Shown here: positions 16,062-23,439 of the stretch, piece after piece
How positions within the stretch are numbered: the first letter of the stretch is position 1
Layout: the number at the start of each line of letters is the position of its first letter
Translations under genes and position numbers: made by a program
DNA from: Candidatus Moraniibacteriota bacterium
GTDB taxonomy: Bacteria > Patescibacteriota > Minisyncoccia > Moranbacterales > UBA1568
NCBI GenBank assembly: GCA_018062205.1
Contig: JAGOSP010000012.1
Coordinates: 1 to 33,797 of the forward strand
Direction of reading: 5' to 3'
Length of the DNA stretch: 33,797 nt
The notes under the pieces: model-generated
The model's input: the letters and a program-made list of their open reading frames with translations, nothing else
Database searches by the model: none
What the model was told of the DNA's origin: nothing

Positions 16062-16090
16062 ACTGTAGCGTAATAAAAAGAAGCTGTCAA
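16062..16090 (-). promoter_or_regulatory. Promoter TTGACA-17-TACAGT of rpsP
   Basis: Minus-strand TTGACA (16090-16085) overlapping the smc TGA stop, 17 bp, TACAGT (16067-16062). Predicted start near 16055, a leader of about 38 nt. Confidence 0.65.
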
Positions 16091-18381
16091 CCTGAAACGA
16101 GCACCCCGTCTTTTTTAACCTGATCCAATCGAACTGAGAGGAGCTGCGAGATACCGTCACGCTGCATAGTAACGCCGTACAGAAGCCCGGCACGCGCCAT
16201 TGTCTCACGATTATGCGTAATAGCAATGAATTGCGTTTGACCAGAAAGCTCTTGGAGCATCGTGCTAAACCGACGAGAATTTGCTTCATCTAATGCGGCC
16301 TCTACTTCATCAAGCACAGCAAATGGTGGTGGATTATGCGAAATAATAGCAAAGAGAAGAGCCAGAGATGTCAATGAACGCTCCCCTCCCGAAAGCATTG
16401 AGAGATGCGTAATTTTCTTTCCTGGAGGACACGCGAAAATATCGATACCTACTCCTTCATGCTCTTCCTCATTCTGCTCATTATTACTAACATCATTCAT
16501 TTCTTCGTCCTCCCCACGACGTCTCAGTGCTATACGAACCTGAGTGATATCTGCTTTCCCTCCACCAAAAATCAAGCCAAAATAATGCACAAATCGTTTC
16601 TTAATTTCCTCAAAGGTTCCCTTAAAAGCCTGATCGATTTTTACATCCATTTCCTTGACTACCGCCCGGAGCGATTCGAGTGCCTGCTTGAGATCGGCTG
16701 ATTCGTGCGTTAAAAATTCGAAACGCTTCGCCGTCTCTTCGTATTCATCGACAATAAGCGGATCAATAGTTCCAATATGCTCCACCTCTCCCTTAAGACG
16801 ACTAATTTCACGCTCCAATCGTTCACGTTGTACCTCGGTTTCTCCGTCATACACAACGTCCTCGGGTCGCATCGCAAGTTCTTCGGACACCAATGTTACC
16901 AAGTCTTCTTCTCGCACTTCAACTCGTGCCAAGCGCACCTTCAATTCATTGAAGTTATCTTTTAGTTGTTGCAAAGTTCGTTCGCACTCACGAGACTCTT
17001 TTTCTTTTGCGAAAAATGTTTCTCTCTGTACACGATTTGCTTCACGATGAGAAGCAATCAGACGTTCTTTTTCCGCTATTTGAGCTTCACACCGAACGGC
17101 TCCTTCCTTTGCAGTCAACAACTCGTTCTCAAAAGACTGGAGTCTGATATCACTTGCTACTTTCTCCTCTTGGTTCAAACCAATAATCTGTGTTTCCCTG
17201 ATACTGCCAACGCCTGCTTTTTCTGATAATTCAAACAATTCCTGTTTAATCACTTGCGCAAACTCTCGAATATCTTGTAAATCTGCCAATTGCTCTACCG
17301 ACTGAATCCGCTCAATAAGCTGTCCTTGATCTGTGCCGATTTTTTCTATGGAACGTTTCACGAAAGCGAGGTCCACAGGAATAGTTTTCACGACCTCTTT
17401 TTCCTTTCGTCTTTCCATCTCAATCTCAATTTTCCCCTCAACAATACTCCTCGTTCGTGAAAAAGCATTAAATTCCACATGCAAAGCGCGAACTTCGTTT
17501 TGCCAAAGCTCCTCTTCCTTTTGATCCTCAAGTGCCGAGCTCACTGCGGCCACCTCTTCGCGCAAATGAACAGAACGCTCCTCAAGCTCTTGAATGACTT
17601 GCTCCGCCGTCTCTCGATCACGTACCAGTGTTCCGCGCTCCGTTTGAAACTGATGCCAAAGAAAACCATAGAGAAGGAATTGCTTTTCCTTTAATCGGAT
17701 AGCCACATCCTTTCCCTGCGAAGCCTTCTCTGCCTGACGCTTGAGATTCCGCAGATGCGGTTCAATCTCAACCAAAAGCGCATCAACTCGCACCAGATTT
17801 TCTCGGGTGCTCTCTAATTTTCGTATTGCTCGCTCTTTTTCAATCTGATATGGTTTCACGCCTGCCGCATCTTCAAAAATCGCTCGACGCTCAAGCGGAG
17901 AAGCAAGCAATACAGCGTCCGACATCCCTTGTGTGATGACACAATAACTCTCTTTCCCAATGCCAGCCTTTGCTAATATATCAACGACATCGAGCAATCT
18001 TACTTTGTTGCCATTAATAAAATATTCTCCTTCACCACTCCGGTGAATTTTCCGCGTAATCGAAACATCAGAAAATTCAATCGGAAGACGCTGATCAGCA
18101 TTGTCAAAATGGAGAGTCACGACCGCGCTCCCCATTCGCGATTTTCCTTCAGTACCAGCAAAAATAACATCTTCAGATTTTTTCCCACGCAAATTTTTAG
18201 AAGACTGCTCGCCAATGGCAAAACGAATCGCATCCGCGATATTCGATTTGCCCGAGCCATTTGGCCCGACAATAGCGGTGATACCACGTCCCGAAGCAGC
18301 CTCAGGCGAAGACGAAAAATCTAGTACCGTTTTGTTGGCAAAGGATTTGAAACCAGAAATTTCGAGACGCTTGAGATACAT
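16087..18381 (-). CDS. smc: SMC chromosome-segregation ATPase, short form without a recognisable hinge
   Basis: A 764-aa protein where typical SMC has about 1,150-1,200. The N-terminal head has FKSFANKT and Walker A GPNGSGKS (39-46), the QG(M)SDAVLLASPLERRAIFEDAAG segment and R-loop region. The C-terminal head has signature LSGGERS (from 663), Walker B FAVLDE (687-692) and the VEAALDEAN D-loop, so both ATPase halves are intact. The arms (about 170-390 and 400-590) are coiled coil. The conserved Gly-rich hinge domain of about 150 residues between them is not visible; only a short non-heptad stretch around 393-410 joins them. It should still form ATP-sandwich heads, but dimerisation must differ. 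It lies downstream of rnc, from which it is separated by the IS30 insertion. Confidence 0.85.
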   Translation of the reverse strand: MYLKRLEISGFKSFANKTVLDFSSSPEAASGRGITAIVGPNGSGKSNIADAIRFAIGEQSSKNLRGKKSEDVIFAGTEGKSRMGSAVVTLHFDNADQRLPIEFSDVSITRKIHRSGEGEYFINGNKVRLLDVVDILAKAGIGKESYCVITQGMSDAVLLASPLERRAIFEDAAGVKPYQIEKERAIRKLESTRENLVRVDALLVEIEPHLRNLKRQAEKASQGKDVAIRLKEKQFLLYGFLWHQFQTERGTLVRDRETAEQVIQELEERSVHLREEVAAVSSALEDQKEEELWQNEVRALHVEFNAFSRTRSIVEGKIEIEMERRKEKEVVKTIPVDLAFVKRSIEKIGTDQGQLIERIQSVEQLADLQDIREFAQVIKQELFELSEKAGVGSIRETQIIGLNQEEKVASDIRLQSFENELLTAKEGAVRCEAQIAEKERLIASHREANRVQRETFFAKEKESRECERTLQQLKDNFNELKVRLARVEVREEDLVTLVSEELAMRPEDVVYDGETEVQRERLEREISRLKGEVEHIGTIDPLIVDEYEETAKRFEFLTHESADLKQALESLRAVVKEMDVKIDQAFKGTFEEIKKRFVHYFGLIFGGGKADITQVRIALRRRGEDEEMNDVSNNEQNEEEHEGVGIDIFACPPGKKITHLSMLSGGERSLTSLALLFAIISHNPPPFAVLDEVEAALDEANSRRFSTMLQELSGQTQFIAITHNRETMARAGLLYGVTMQRDGISQLLSVRLDQVKKDGVLVSG

Positions 18382-18512
18382 ACATTGCTTCGCCTAAAAA
18401 TACAATTCGTCAAAAGAAAAAACCAGGCTTTGTCCTGCGTGACACTTCTTTTTCATTCAAATTTGACTCCTTTTGCTTCAGTATATCTGATTTTGAGTAA
18501 GAAAAGAAATCA
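18382..18512 (-). promoter_or_regulatory. smc leader region with a 20-codon open frame
   Basis: Between the cassette terminator and smc. A minus-strand ATG at 18456 with GGAG ten bases upstream opens a 20-codon frame to TAG at 18394-18396. Inside it, CAGG (18437-18434) and CCTG (18427-18424) form a weak 4-bp hairpin followed by a T-rich tract. It could be a leader peptide with a weak attenuator or chance. No convincing promoter was found. Confidence 0.25.
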
Positions 18513-18537
18513 GGGCGAGCACCATTGGTACCCGCCC
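18513..18537 (-). terminator. Terminator of the small-membrane-protein cassette
   Basis: GGGCG...CGCCC (18513-18517 / 18533-18537) with inner GCACC/GGTAC partial pairing and loop ATT; on the minus strand a T-rich tract (TGATTTCTTTTCTT) follows at 18511-18498. It lies 16 bases past the stop of the 51-aa gene. Confidence 0.7.
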
Positions 18538-18553
18538 CATACTACGCCCGAGA

Positions 18554-18709
18554 TTATTCAGGGCAGTTCTTGCGCCGCCCCTTCCATGCCCGCCGTATAT
18601 CCCTGGCCACGTCAAGTACAAAGTACAGAGCCAAGACCAAGGCTGCGACCAGCGCTATAGCTGTGCAGAAATTCTCTGCCAGCTGGAAAAACGTCAGATC
18701 ACGCAGCAT
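18554..18709 (-). CDS. Small membrane protein, 51 aa
   Basis: The ATG at 18709 has a near-perfect SD (GGAGGT, spacing 4-5), so translation is likely efficient. The protein has an amphipathic N-terminus (MLRDLTFFQLAENF), one hydrophobic helix (about 14-33, rich in Ala, Val and Leu) and a very basic tail (RDIRRAWKGRRKN). I do not recognise a family. The size, single helix and basic tail fit small phage or plasmid membrane proteins (holin-like, or type I toxin-like) but no specific motif supports either. It overlaps the end of the 42-aa gene by 11 bp and ends just before a terminator. GC content is clearly higher than the flanking genes. Confidence 0.55.
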   Translation of the reverse strand: MLRDLTFFQLAENFCTAIALVAALVLALYFVLDVARDIRRAWKGRRKNCPE

Positions 18710-18827
18710 GGAGACCTCCGTCGACTCGCCGTTTTGCCAAGAAATCAATGGCTACGCCAGCAAACGGCGAAGCCAAGCCAACTACCATGAGCATCAGCGT
18801 AAAGCATGCTCCCAAAAATGTTTCCAT
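18699..18827 (-). CDS. Small membrane protein, 42 aa
   Basis: The ATG at 18827 is preceded by GGAGGG with a spacing of about four bases, one of the strongest SDs in the window. The product starts METFLGA, has one hydrophobic helix (about 5-30, with Met, Leu, Val, Gly and Pro) and a short basic/polar tail (AKRRVDGG). No family is recognised. It is the first gene of a two-gene unit with the 51-aa protein and overlaps it, suggesting coupled translation and perhaps a two-part membrane complex. Its promoter, with two palindromes, lies at 18845-18887. Confidence 0.55.
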   Translation of the reverse strand: METFLGACFTLMLMVVGLASPFAGVAIDFLAKRRVDGGLHAA

Positions 18828-18844
18828 CACACCCTCCGAAGAAA

Positions 18845-18887
18845 GCCGTTCACGGCCAAAAATAGCCTCTGTTCGAGGCCTTGTCAA
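18845..18887 (-). promoter_or_regulatory. Promoter with two palindromes for the small-protein cassette
   Basis: Minus-strand TTGACA (18887-18882), 17 bp, TATTTT (18864-18859). The spacer contains the inverted repeat GCCTC-5-GAGGC (18865-18879). Another, GCCGT-2-ACGGC (18845-18856), covers the predicted start of transcription. Both contain GAAC on the minus strand. Position between and after the boxes is where repressors usually bind. Confidence 0.55.
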
Positions 18888-18915
18888 AGAAATTCTCAAC
18901 ATTCATTCCATTCTG

Positions 18916-19934
18916 AATTAGGACACTCTGGTCTAGAATGTCCGTATGAAAAAGAAAGGAAAATTGACTCGGGCGGAGCGCTTTGAAATCAGCATCCTCC
19001 TTGAGAAGCGGTATTCATACCGCAAGATCGGAGAAGCGATGGGACGGAGTCCGAATACCGTCTCGTACGAGGTGAAGGTGAACAGTGTCAACGGGGCATA
19101 CGACCCATTGAAAGCAGACAGGAAAGCGAGGGTCAGGAAGCGAGCATCGAAGTACCAGTGGAGGAAGATCAATGAAAACGGAATACTCCAGTCATATGTC
19201 ATCGACAAGCTGAAAGCCCACTGGAACCCCGACGAGATATCAGGAAGGATGAAGGAGGATAAGGAACCCTTTTTCGTGTCGAAAAACACCATCTACAAGT
19301 GGCTGTACAGTGCAAGAGGGCAACGGTATTGTCAACACCTCTATTCGGAACGGTATGATCGGAAACCACGGAAGATCAAGAAGACCAAACGGATAATGAT
19401 TCCCGACCGTGTGAGCCTCGACAAGCGGTTTCTCGGTGCTGGGAACCGCACCCGCTATGGTCACTTCGAGGGCGATACCGTCGTATCGAAACGAGGCGGC
19501 ACGGGAGGAATGAGCGTCCTCTTGGAGCGGAAGAGTCGATTACTTGTGGTACGGAAACTTCACTCGATGTCACCCACGGAGAATCTGCGGAAGATACGGG
19601 ACATGATAAGAAGACTGAACATGAAAAGCATCACTTTTGACAACGGGATAGAAAACAAACGGCATGCCTCAATCGGGGTACCGACCTTCTTCTGCGATCC
19701 GTATTCCTCCTGGCAGAAGGGAGGGGTGGAGAACGGGAACAAGATGCTGAGACGGTACTTTCCTCAGGGGACGGACTTTTCCTTGGTGGATCAGAAGGAG
19801 ATCGATCGGGCGGTGAAGATCATCAACGAAAAACCGAGGAAGATCCTCGGTTATCGTACGGCATTTGAAGTAGCACGGGCAGGTGGAGTATTATTGAAAG
19901 AGTCTCATCTTTGTTTTGATCGGGTGTCCTAATT
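18916..19934 (+). mobile_element. IS30-family insertion sequence, about 1,019 bp, apparently intact
   Basis: Left end AATTAGGACAC (18916-18926) and right end GTGTCCTAATT (19924/5-19934) form perfect 11-bp inverted repeats, with further partial matches inward (CTCTGGTC against CCCGATC). They enclose one complete transposase gene whose stop lies within the right repeat. Just inside the left end, GGACACTCT (18921-18929) and AGAATGTCC (18935-18943) make an imperfect palindrome. IS30 elements duplicate only 2-3 bp of target, and no clear duplication could be assigned. The element sits between rnc and smc. Confidence 0.85.
18946..19932 (+). CDS. IS30-family transposase
   Basis: A 328-aa protein. 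The N-terminal helix-turn-helix (about 7-45: LTRAERFEISILLEKRYSYRKIGEAMGRSPNTVSYEV) is typical of IS30. The DDE integrase core has GHFEGDTV (first Asp, about 177), SITFDNGIEN (second Asp) and WQKGGVENGNKMLRRYFPQGTDF (Glu), so the catalytic triad is complete. It cuts and joins the IS ends. There is no SD; the -10-like TAGAAT (18934-18939) is six bases before the ATG, so the mRNA may be leaderless. Codon use and GC are higher than in the flanking rnc and smc genes, consistent with recent arrival. Confidence 0.95.
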   Translation: MKKKGKLTRAERFEISILLEKRYSYRKIGEAMGRSPNTVSYEVKVNSVNGAYDPLKADRKARVRKRASKYQWRKINENGILQSYVIDKLKAHWNPDEISGRMKEDKEPFFVSKNTIYKWLYSARGQRYCQHLYSERYDRKPRKIKKTKRIMIPDRVSLDKRFLGAGNRTRYGHFEGDTVVSKRGGTGGMSVLLERKSRLLVVRKLHSMSPTENLRKIRDMIRRLNMKSITFDNGIENKRHASIGVPTFFCDPYSSWQKGGVENGNKMLRRYFPQGTDFSLVDQKEIDRAVKIINEKPRKILGYRTAFEVARAGGVLLKESHLCFDRVS

Positions 19935-19967
19935 GAGGGGTGAATTTAGGCAAAAGTACTTACTTAT

Positions 19968-19996
19968 ATTATACACTACCAACCCTTATTTTGCAA
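19968..19996 (-). promoter_or_regulatory. Promoter TTGCAA-17-TATAAT reading out of rnc
   Basis: Minus-strand TTGCAA (19996-19991, inside the end of rnc), 17 bp, TATAAT (19973-19968, within about ten bases of the rnc stop). It points toward smc but the IS30 end begins 34 bp downstream. Before the insertion it may have driven smc; now it would give antisense RNA across the transposase gene. Confidence 0.55.
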
Positions 19997-20662
19997 GGCC
20001 TGTTTAGCGGCAGCACGCTGGGCTTCCTGCTTCGAAACCCCTTCGCCTTCAGCAATAAGTTCCTCTCCAACAAACACTCCCGCAATAAAATGACGGTCAT
20101 GATCTGGTCCCCATTCTTTAATCACTCGGTAAGTTGGGGTCACTCCAAAATGCTCTTGGGCCTTCTCTTGAAAAAAACTTTTTGCATCAGCATAGAGTTT
20201 TTGATCAAGCACTTCGGGAAGATGCGAAAGAATGTGCTCCCTAATAAATGCCTGCGCAGCCGCATAGCCCTGATCAAGATACAGCGCCCCGATAATCGCT
20301 TCCATAGCATTCGCCACAATATACTGCCGAGCTCGTCCAGTATCCTTGGATTCGCCACGACTCATGAGCAGGAAATCCTCAATGCCCAATCCCTTGCCGA
20401 TAGTCGCTAGCATATCACCATTAACGAGGGCTGCTCGCCATGCAGTCATCTCACCTTCCGGACGATCATACGCATGAAAAAGATTTTCTGTCACCACCAA
20501 TTCGAGCACGGCATCTCCGAGAAATTCAAGCCGTTCATTGTGAGGTGAAGTACATCCACGATGCTCATTCAGATAGGAACGATGAATCAGGGCCTCTTGA
20601 AAAAAAGCCTTGTTTTTCACACAAATATTCAGTCTTTTCTCAAAGGTGACGACATCAAACAT
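19976..20662 (-). CDS. rnc: Ribonuclease III
   Basis: A 228-aa enzyme. The RNase III domain (about 1-150) has the signature HNERLEFLGDAVLEL (41-55) with the metal-binding E46 and D50, and ANAMEAIIGALYLD with the second Glu. The residue three before that Glu is Asn where E. coli has Asp114. The double-stranded RNA-binding domain (about 157-226) is complete, ending EAQRAAAKQAL. It processes rRNA precursors and other duplex RNA. The ATG at 20662 is preferred over the in-frame TTG at 20698, giving a normal length. It follows nusB by 64 bp on the same strand and leads into the IS30 element. Confidence 0.95.
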   Translation of the reverse strand: MFDVVTFEKRLNICVKNKAFFQEALIHRSYLNEHRGCTSPHNERLEFLGDAVLELVVTENLFHAYDRPEGEMTAWRAALVNGDMLATIGKGLGIEDFLLMSRGESKDTGRARQYIVANAMEAIIGALYLDQGYAAAQAFIREHILSHLPEVLDQKLYADAKSFFQEKAQEHFGVTPTYRVIKEWGPDHDRHFIAGVFVGEELIAEGEGVSKQEAQRAAAKQALQNKGW

Positions 20663-20726
20663 ACTGCGACTCTCACTTCGTGTTCGTATCCCGAACAAAA
20701 ATTATTTCTCTCTTCTACAAAATACC

Positions 20727-21278
20727 TTAGGTTGTCTCTCCTTTTCTCTCGATAAAACCTTCTTCTTCGGACGCTTGTAATACACCCCCCTCCATCACCC
20801 TCTCTTCTTTCCGTTGCTGAAAATGAGCATGATTTTCGGAAACATCGTTTTTAAGCGGCTCGCCCATCTCGCGATAAATAGTTCCTAAAACGCCATTGAC
20901 AAAACGCGGACTAGCATCGCTCCCAAATGACTTTGCAAGCTCAATAGACTCATTAATCGCTACTTTGGGTGGCACTTCATCGTAATTACCAAACATGAGC
21001 TCGTAAATGCCCAGCCGAAGAATATTTCTATCAATAACCGTTACCTGTTCAAGTGGCCACTCCGGAGCGCACTTCTCAATAAGCGAGTCAATAGTCTTCC
21101 GTTCTCGTAAAATCCCTTCTATCAGGTGTTTTGCAAAAATGGTTTCATCGATTCCCGGAGCGAACTCAATAATGTTTCGATCGAGAATGGTCATTGACTG
21201 GTCATCGTGCTGACCTTGGAAATCCCATTCGAAAAGGGACTGCATTGCGACTGAGCGCTGAAGATGTCTATTGGCCAT
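20727..21278 (-). CDS. nusB: Transcription antitermination factor NusB
   Basis: A 183-aa protein. Residues 1-138 are the all-helical NusB fold: [20 protein letters not shown], the [21 protein letters not shown] segment and [28 protein letters not shown]. NusB with S10 binds boxA RNA for rRNA antitermination. The remaining 45 residues are a charged extension (Glu/Arg/Lys/Gln rich) absent from standard NusB. It lies between rpmF and rnc in one likely transcript. No SD is seen before the ATG. Confidence 0.95.
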
Positions 21279-21860: not shown

Positions 21861-22334
21861 GTTCTTTTTTGAAATTTACTAGCAACCTGCACCGAAGATA
21901 ACACCAGTGTTTCGTATCGATGCGCTATCAACAGTTTCACAAGCGACAGCAGCTGGCGAAGTTCCAAGATCGACTGACTGGACATTTACCACGAAGTCCC
22001 CATTTCCCGTAACACCACAGTTCGCTGCAGCTGTACCGGTAATAACATCGGCATTTTCGACAGCAGTATGAGCCGCAGATGCAGCTCCACCATCAATTCT
22101 GTTGTTGGCTGTCGGCATCATCGCTTCGACAATGGCCCCAGTCAGAACGGCGCCGTCACAAGCGATCATAATAGCGGCCTGCAGTGAATGTACTTGCGCT
22201 TTGAATGCAGCGACATTCGCCTTCTCACGAGCGTTTGAAAGTGAGACCAATACAATAGAAGCGAGAATACCGATAATTGCGATGACGATTAAGAGTTCAA
22301 TAAGAGTGAAACCCTTCTGAGACTGATTTTTCAT
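21861..22334 (-). repeat. Pilin tandem duplication, copy A (copy B at 22360-22833)
   Basis: Two 474-bp blocks at a 499-bp interval, each starting GTTCTTTTTTGAAATTTACTAG (as two adjacent pieces) and ending at a pilin ATG. By eye there are no gaps; the N-terminal 192 coding bases are identical, the middle differs at many sites, and the 3' third is near-identical. Confidence 0.85.
21879..22334 (-). CDS. Type IV pilin, copy 1 (weak translation start)
   Basis: A 151-aa pilin with the class III signal: short basic leader and [21 protein letters not shown], cleaved after Gly8 by prepilin peptidase, with the methylated Phe and Glu5 of the mature protein present. The hydrophobic helix is followed by a coiled stalk ([20 protein letters not shown]) and a small globular domain with four cysteines, the last at the C-terminus. 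Residues 1-64 match copy 2 exactly. In contrast to copies 2 and 3 there is no SD before this ATG: the upstream 15 bases are AT-rich. It may depend on coupling with copy 2, 43 bases upstream, or be poorly expressed as a minor variant. Confidence 0.92.
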   Translation of the reverse strand: MKNQSQKGFTLIELLIVIAIIGILASIVLVSLSNAREKANVAAFKAQVHSLQAAIMIACDGAVLTGAIVEAMMPTANNRIDGGAASAAHTAVENADVITGTAAANCGVTGNGDFVVNVQSVDLGTSPAAVACETVDSASIRNTGVIFGAGC

Positions 22335-22377: not shown

Positions 22378-22833
22378 CTAGCAACCTGCAGCAAAAATAA
22401 CGCCGGTGTTTTGTATCGATGTGCTATCAACAGTTTCACAAGCGACAGCAGCTGGCGAAGTTCCAAGATCTGCCGATTGGACATCTATCTGGAAGTCTCC
22501 ATTCCCTGTGAGACCGCAGTTCGCTACGTCCGTACCAGTCACAATATCACCAGCCACAACGGCGTCACGAACAGCACTCGCCGTGTCACCATCTATTCTG
22601 TTGTTGTCTGTCGGCATCATCGCTTCGACAATGGCCTCACTCAGAACGGCGCCGTCACAAGCGATCATAATAGCGGCCTGCAGTGAATGTACTTGCGCTT
22701 TGAATGCAGCGACATTCGCCTTCTCACGAGCGTTTGAAAGTGAGACCAATACAATAGAAGCGAGAATACCGATAATTGCGATGACGATTAAGAGTTCAAT
22801 AAGAGTGAAACCCTTCTGAGACTGATTTTTCAT
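22378..22833 (-). CDS. Type IV pilin, copy 2
   Basis: A 151-aa pilin with the same leader, N-terminal helix and cysteine pattern as copy 1. It differs in the middle of the globular part (about residues 65-120), for example [12 protein letters not shown] and [12 protein letters not shown]. The ATG follows AAAGGAGGTGAGGGT, an extended match to the 16S rRNA 3' end, as expected for a very abundant protein. The pilin is assembled at the membrane by PilC/PilB. The globular domain carries the differences between copies, so different surfaces are plausible. Confidence 0.93.
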
Positions 22834-22888: not shown

Positions 22889-23302
22889 CTAGCAACCTGC
22901 AGCAAAGATAACACCGGTTTCTTCTATAAATGTCGTCCCATCTCCTGCGCACAAAACAGCGGGGGCAGAAGTACCAATATTCACCGATTCAACAAGAATC
23001 TGGAAGCTCCCTGAACCAACAGCTCCACAATCCATTGCAGTGATATCAGCAGCAACAACCGCATTAATCCTATTATTTGATGTAGGCATGATTGAGTTCA
23101 CAAGAACTTCGTCAAAATCTGCCGTGTCACACTCGCTCAACAACGCTGTTTGCAATGAATGTACTTGTGCCTTATATGCAGCGATGTTCGCCTTTTCACG
23201 AGCGTTCGAAAGTGAGACCAATACAATAGAAGCGAGAATACCGATAATTGCGATGACGATTAAGAGTTCAATAAGAGTGAAGCCTTTTAGATTTTTTTTC
23301 AT
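22889..23302 (-). CDS. Type IV pilin, copy 3 (first in the transcript)
   Basis: A 137-aa pilin starting [14 protein letters not shown], with the same helix and stalk but a more diverged globular domain ([20 protein letters not shown]). It keeps four cysteines and the VIFAAGC ending. The ATG at 23302 is chosen because the pilin leader then has six residues and AAAGGAGGTGAGGGT lies directly upstream; a longer frame to 23371 would read through that SD. It is the first pilin after pilC (138 bp), probably with its own promoter (TACAAT at 23382-23377 with a poor -35). Confidence 0.92.
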
Positions 23303-23439
23303 ACCCTCACCTCCTTTCTGTTTAGAATTTTTATTTTTATACGAAACCCTTCTAGCTTCATTTTCAATCATAATTTATTGTACACTTCTCTCTCTAAAAA
23401 AACTAGTTCCCTGTTCCTCTGTTCCGCTCAATTTCTTCC

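What the first reader, a model, noticed from the sequence alone, without database searches (positions are those of the whole stretch)
18513..18887. Autonomous cassette of two tiny membrane proteins
Within 375 bp there is a complete unit: TTGACA/TATTTT promoter, an inverted repeat inside the promoter spacer and another over the start site, two overlapping genes of 42 and 51 codons each with a near-perfect SD, and a strong terminator. Each product has one membrane helix and a basic tail. Such strong SDs are rare in this window. The design suggests tightly repressed, high-yield expression of membrane-active peptides, such as a phage/plasmid holin-like pair or a toxin-like system, not a known family.
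Basis: partly seen in the sequence, partly recalled or inferred. Interest (0 to 1): 0.65.

Follow-up and report, generated by a model that had tools for sequence, protein, structure and literature searches.

The report
Small membrane-peptide genes between rnc and smc
In a Patescibacteria genome, two real but tiny genes for single-helix membrane peptides sit in their inherited place between two housekeeping genes, and only look like a free-standing cassette because a transposon later landed between them and their upstream neighbour; they are found only in this genus and their job is unknown.

Summary
The features are there, on the minus strand: two overlapping ORFs (42 and 51 codons), strong SDs, a strong 3' terminator. 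In the window only these two short ORFs combine a strong SD with a TM helix. The 'autonomous cassette' reading is mostly wrong. All four genomes of the genus carry short single-TM ORFs with strong SDs in the same interval, nusB-rnc-[ORFs]-terminator-smc. The window looks isolated because an IS30-type element (18900-19950, CAA duplication) inserted between rnc and the ORFs. The 'inverted repeat in the promoter spacer' is a hairpin plus T-run that recurs at this place in the relatives: the rnc terminator or an attenuator. The TTGACA is not shared. Two relatives instead share a TATAAT promoter at the 3' end of rnc, which the IS has cut off here. ORF2 is a genuine coding gene (52% identity to G001, coding-type changes). 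No relative was found in phages, plasmids, viral contigs or family libraries, or convincingly beyond the genus. Holin-pair and plasmid readings are not supported; a toxin role lacks positive evidence. Most likely these are lineage-specific accessory bitopic membrane peptides, with a conserved hairpin setting their transcription. Target unknown.

The parts
18702..18827 (-). ORF1, 42 aa, one TM helix (METFLGACF...)
   Evidence: SD GGAGGG at 18837-18832; best 19-residue hydropathy 2.07; no match in relatives in a single-sequence search; only weak similarity to a 40-aa ORF in G003 (25%); shorter helix-less counterpart of 21 aa in G001
18557..18709 (-). ORF2, 51 aa, one TM helix, basic tail (MLRDLTFFQ...)
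   Evidence: 52% identical ORF at the same place in G001 (E 4e-8), distant relative in G003 (E 2e-4); coding-type substitutions; hydropathy 2.69, C-terminal charge +4
18864..18880 (-).
   Evidence: terminator-like site; similar hairpin plus T-run at this place in G001, G002, G003
18859..18887 (-). TTGACA-17-TATTTT promoter-like match, function unproven
   Evidence: 10 of 12; TTGACA not shared by G001-G003
18511..18539 (-). Strong intrinsic terminator after ORF2
   Evidence: 13-pair stem, MFE -22, z -4.8; equivalents in G001 (z -3.9) and G002 (z -6.2)
18900..19950 (+). IS30-type insertion element, transposase ORF 18946-19932, flanked by CAA (18897-18899 and 19951-19953)
   Evidence: HTH_38 domain, ends fixed from copies in relatives
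19968..19996 (-). Likely native promoter TTGCAA-17-TATAAT at the 3' end of rnc, now cut off by the IS
   Evidence: 10 of 12; same site in G001, perfect TTGACA-17-TATAAT in G002
19976..20671 (-). rnc, ribonuclease III (start at ATG 20671 assumed; the ORF listing gives TTG 20698)
   Evidence: Ribonucleas_3_3 1e-38
16087..18381 (-). smc-like gene, 764 aa
   Evidence: SMC_N 1e-67

Best explanation
The locus is the ancestral nusB-rnc-[small ORFs]-smc interval of a Patescibacteria genus. The small ORFs encode one-helix membrane peptides, most with basic C-terminal tails. Shown: synteny, coding constraint on ORF2, strong SDs, a recurring hairpin plus T-run upstream and a terminator downstream, and an IS30-type insertion that separated rnc from the ORFs. 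Inferred: ORF1 and ORF2 are translationally coupled; transcription natively starts at the TATAAT promoter at the end of rnc (or comes from the nusB-rnc operon) and must read through the hairpin, which acts as an attenuator or partial terminator; here the IS cut that supply, so expression now depends on the lone TTGACA/TATTTT match or on leakage. Also inferred: the peptides insert N-out/C-in and act as accessory subunits or modulators of a larger membrane protein, as studied small bitopic proteins do, with fast lineage turnover.
For: Syntenic one-helix ORFs with strong SDs in all four genus members; 9 found against 0.05 expected. ORF2 pN/pS 0.50, 27 of 63 changes at third positions, BLOSUM 102 against 40 +/- 14, 0 of 5000. 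IS boundaries and CAA duplication. Hairpin plus T-run at the same place in four genomes. TATAAT promoter shared by three. Hydropathy and charge. Known small bitopic proteins modulate partners: AcrZ (PMC7267776), MgrB (PMC8404706).
Against: ORF1 is poorly conserved (21 aa without helix in G001, absent in G002) and ORF2 is absent in G002, so neither is essential. Leader folding energies are not exceptional (z -0.5 to -1.8). No expression data and no partner. G003 lacks the TATAAT promoter.
Confidence: 0.6

Rival explanations
1. Type I toxin-like locus: the peptides are membrane-damaging toxins held down by an antisense RNA, with RNase III from the neighbouring gene removing the duplex.
For: Size, single helix, basic tail; rnc next door; RNase III silences such toxins in B. 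subtilis (PMC3531473).
Against: No promoter-like site on the plus strand within the cassette; no Rfam antitoxin match; single copy in the genome; rnc neighbours smc in most family genomes without any such ORF.
Confidence: 0.12
2. Phage or plasmid holin-like pair carried as a mobile cassette.
For: Two short overlapping membrane ORFs with strong SDs.
Against: Housekeeping neighbours and genus-wide synteny; no relatives in phages, plasmids or viral contigs; no endolysin nearby among the genes identified.
Confidence: 0.03
3. The unit became truly autonomous after the IS insertion: TTGACA/TATTTT is a new working promoter that bypasses the attenuator and now drives constitutive expression.
For: TTGACA with ideal 17-bp spacing, absent in G001-G003; ORFs remain intact although the native promoter is cut off.
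Against: -10 match is only 4 of 6 and is the T-run of the hairpin; such 9-of-12 sites arise in shuffles (mean 1.2 per 1.7 kb).
Confidence: 0.2
4. The ORFs are not translated; only the hairpins matter.
For: Orphan proteins of 42-51 aa; no database family.
Against:: coding-type substitutions in ORF2, and SD plus TM helix far above shuffles in four species.
Confidence: 0.05

Closest known systems
Small bitopic bacterial membrane proteins (AcrZ, MgrB, YohP type)
   Same: Under 60 aa, one TM helix, no signal domain, own SD; working analogy only
   Different: No sequence relation found; partner unknown; genus-restricted
Type I toxin-antitoxin toxins (e.g. TxpA, YonT)
   Same: Short, hydrophobic, basic tail; RNase III in the neighbourhood
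   Different: No antisense promoter found, no multi-copy pattern, not phage-borne, fixed chromosomal site
Intrinsic terminator/attenuator leaders
   Same: GC hairpin plus T-run between promoter and SD, recurring in four genomes
   Different: No sensor or alternative structure identified
IS30-family insertion sequences
   Same: One transposase ORF with HTH_38 domain, imperfect terminal inverted repeats, 3-bp target duplication, about 1.05 kb
   Different: It is only the interrupting element, not the source of the small ORFs

Membership tests
Small single-TM (bitopic) membrane proteins | Short ORF with one hydrophobic helix | tested here: met
   Best 19-residue hydropathy 2.07 and 2.69
Small single-TM (bitopic) membrane proteins | Evidence of translation or coding constraint | tested here: met
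   ORF2 by substitution pattern; ORF1 not shown
Small single-TM (bitopic) membrane proteins | Membrane location and partner | not testable with these tools
   needs experiment
Type I toxin-antitoxin | Antisense or trans RNA antitoxin gene | tested here: not met
   no plus-strand promoter-like site in the cassette, no Rfam match; a consensus scan can miss one
Type I toxin-antitoxin | Toxicity on expression | not testable with these tools
   needs experiment
Phage holin | Lysis-gene or phage context | tested here: not met
   neighbours nusB, rnc, smc
Phage holin | Relatives in phages | tested here: not met
   none convincing (ORF1 best E 3)
IS30-family element (interrupting) | Transposase with N-terminal HTH_38, imperfect terminal inverted repeats, 2-3 bp duplication | tested here: met
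   HTH_38 2.5e-11; 14-bp inverted repeat 93% (I5); CAA duplication. No integrase-core Pfam match was returned; the IS30 naming rests on HTH_38, size and ends

The most novel reading that the evidence does not exclude
A lineage-specific, attenuator-controlled set of bitopic peptides (two or three unrelated or barely related types swapped in and out at one chromosomal site beside rnc) that acts at the membrane of these presumably host-dependent bacteria, e.g. in self-protection or contact with the host cell, with the rnc-smc gap serving as a nursery for new membrane peptides.
Probability: 0.12. Interest if true: 0.55.

Novelty: new member of a known kind. Interest (0 to 1): 0.3.

Why it matters
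It adds an undescribed small membrane protein family to a phylum whose small proteins are hardly studied, and shows how a transposon can make an inherited gene pair look like a free cassette. The rnc-smc gap, which in this genus repeatedly holds short membrane ORFs with strong SDs, is a compact place to study birth and turnover of small membrane genes.

Tried and rejected
Phage/plasmid origin: no convincing hits. The order-wide profile search gave four weak hits below 0.01 outside the genus; the two inspected (G109, G064) lie opposite other genes, the other two were not inspected. A weak 'paralogue' in the own genome (G000:C6:606) lies opposite another gene. Rfam: only a weak match (E 0.15) inside the IS. 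The boxA idea for a leader motif was not confirmed in 16S leaders. Structure prediction was not run: a single helix would tell little. Literature: the one paper found for small membrane protein plus Patescibacteria is about type IV secretion.

Full report
Observation. The described features are in the sequence, on the minus strand. ORF1 (18827-18702, 42 aa) and ORF2 (18709-18557, 51 aa) overlap by 8 nt, have SDs GGAGGG and GGAGG, and end before a strong terminator (18539-18511, MFE -22 kcal/mol, z -4.8). A TTGACA-17-TATTTT match lies at 18887-18859. In the whole window only these two short ORFs combine a strong SD with a TM helix.

Setting. The neighbours are nusB (20727-21278), rnc (to 19976) and an smc-like gene (18381-16087), all on the minus strand. 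Between rnc and ORF1 lies a transposase ORF on the plus strand (18946-19932) with an HTH_38 domain. Comparison with copies in relatives puts the element at 18900-19950; it is flanked by CAA on both sides, and further fragments lie elsewhere in the same genome. I read it as an IS30-type insertion.

Relatives. In G001 (same genus; contig JAUPUC010000023.1, 'Patescibacteria group bacterium') the same interval has no IS: rnc, a 21-aa ORF with the same stop/start overlap, a 54-aa ORF2 (52% identical), a 65-aa one-helix ORF, terminator, smc. G002 has one 55-aa one-helix ORF there, resembling the G001 65-aa ORF (35%; BLAST aligns only the first 16 residues, E 0.005). G003 has three (40, 45, 69 aa), the last a distant ORF2 relative (E 2e-4 in a single comparison). 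Over the family's rnc-smc intervals, 9 forward ORFs meet the SD and TM criteria against 0.05 expected from dinucleotide shuffles and none on the reverse strand; eight are in the four genus members and one in G004. Three of the 28 loci could not be tested because rnc was not in them. G025 also has small one-helix ORFs upstream of smc.

Coding evidence. ORF2 against G001: 22, 14 and 27 differences at codon positions 1, 2 and 3 over 46 codons, pN/pS 0.50 (pS near saturation), BLOSUM score 102 against 40 +/- 14 when the same changes are scattered at random (0 of 5000 reach it); the other forward frames have stops. The pair was chosen by protein similarity, so this control is somewhat generous. ORF1 has only a weak counterpart (25%) and is the less certain gene.

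Reading of the 'promoter'. Comparing the sequence on both sides of the IS with the relatives (my joined sequence there kept one extra base of the element) shows that the hairpin GGCCTC-GAACA-GAGGCT plus ATTTTT corresponds to GGCCTTTT..AAAAGGTC plus TTTTT in G001, GGCCT..AGGCC plus TTTTTTT in G002, and GATCC..GGATC-GG-TTTTT in G003. This is a terminator-type structure after rnc, not an operator in a promoter. The TTGACA has no counterpart in G001-G003. A different promoter-like site, TTGCAA-17-TATAAT at the rnc 3' end, is shared by the window, G001 and, as perfect TTGACA-17-TATAAT, G002; G003 lacks it. In G002 the SD follows the T-run directly, leaving no room for a promoter, so transcription must pass the hairpin. 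Whole-leader folding energies are not exceptional (z -0.5 to -1.8), so 'attenuator' is an inference from position, T-run and recurrence. In the window the IS has cut the native promoter off.

Function. No match above a curated cut-off in Pfam or NCBIfam, nothing convincing in PHROGs, none in PADLOC; no convincing relatives in phages, plasmids or viral contigs. In 131 genomes of the order the ORF2 profile hits three genus members strongly and four others weakly; two of the weak ones were inspected and are opposite other genes. Size, single helix and mostly basic tail fit small bitopic membrane proteins, studied members of which modulate larger membrane proteins (PMC7267776, PMC8404706). I take this as most likely, without a named partner. 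A type I toxin role is possible but has no positive evidence beyond shape. A holin pair is not supported.

Verdict. Ordinary in kind, new in sequence, genus-restricted, function open.

Noticed in passing
28 family genomes; e.g. G003:C5:6952-7001, G025:C32:25846-25874, G008:C1, G010:C21: GTTCTTT followed within 3-30 nt by AAGGAG and ATG occurs 69 times, against 7 for the reversed pattern and 9 for the permuted TTCTTGT, mostly before orphan genes. GTTCTTT resembles the core of boxA, the NusB-S10 site (from memory); boxA in mRNA leaders is known (PMC5725501). It was not found in the 600 bases before five 16S genes, so the identity is unproven.
   Followed up: partly
upstream of smc in L038, L042, L046, L047 and, more weakly, L041, L057 (genus g3): The smc leaders hold long imperfect inverted repeats (z about -2.3 to -5.2) while the genus of the window does not (60 shuffles each).
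   Followed up: partly
window 18380-18540 and the same place in most family genomes: A T-rich terminator tail followed by a TATACT-type -10 element precedes smc in most family genomes, suggesting that smc has its own promoter.
   Followed up: no
window 21879-22334, 22378-22833, 22889-23371: Tandem pilin-like genes ([22 protein letters not shown]); the latter two have the very strong SD AGAAAGGAGGTGA.
   Followed up: no
G001:C96:1790 and G002:C3:917: Two genomes of the genus share an upstream block (CCTTTTGAAGCCATAAATCAAGTATTGACA...) before a GAAAGGAG SD; in G001 it precedes a 49-aa ORF with a weak helix, in G002 only three codons.
   Followed up: no
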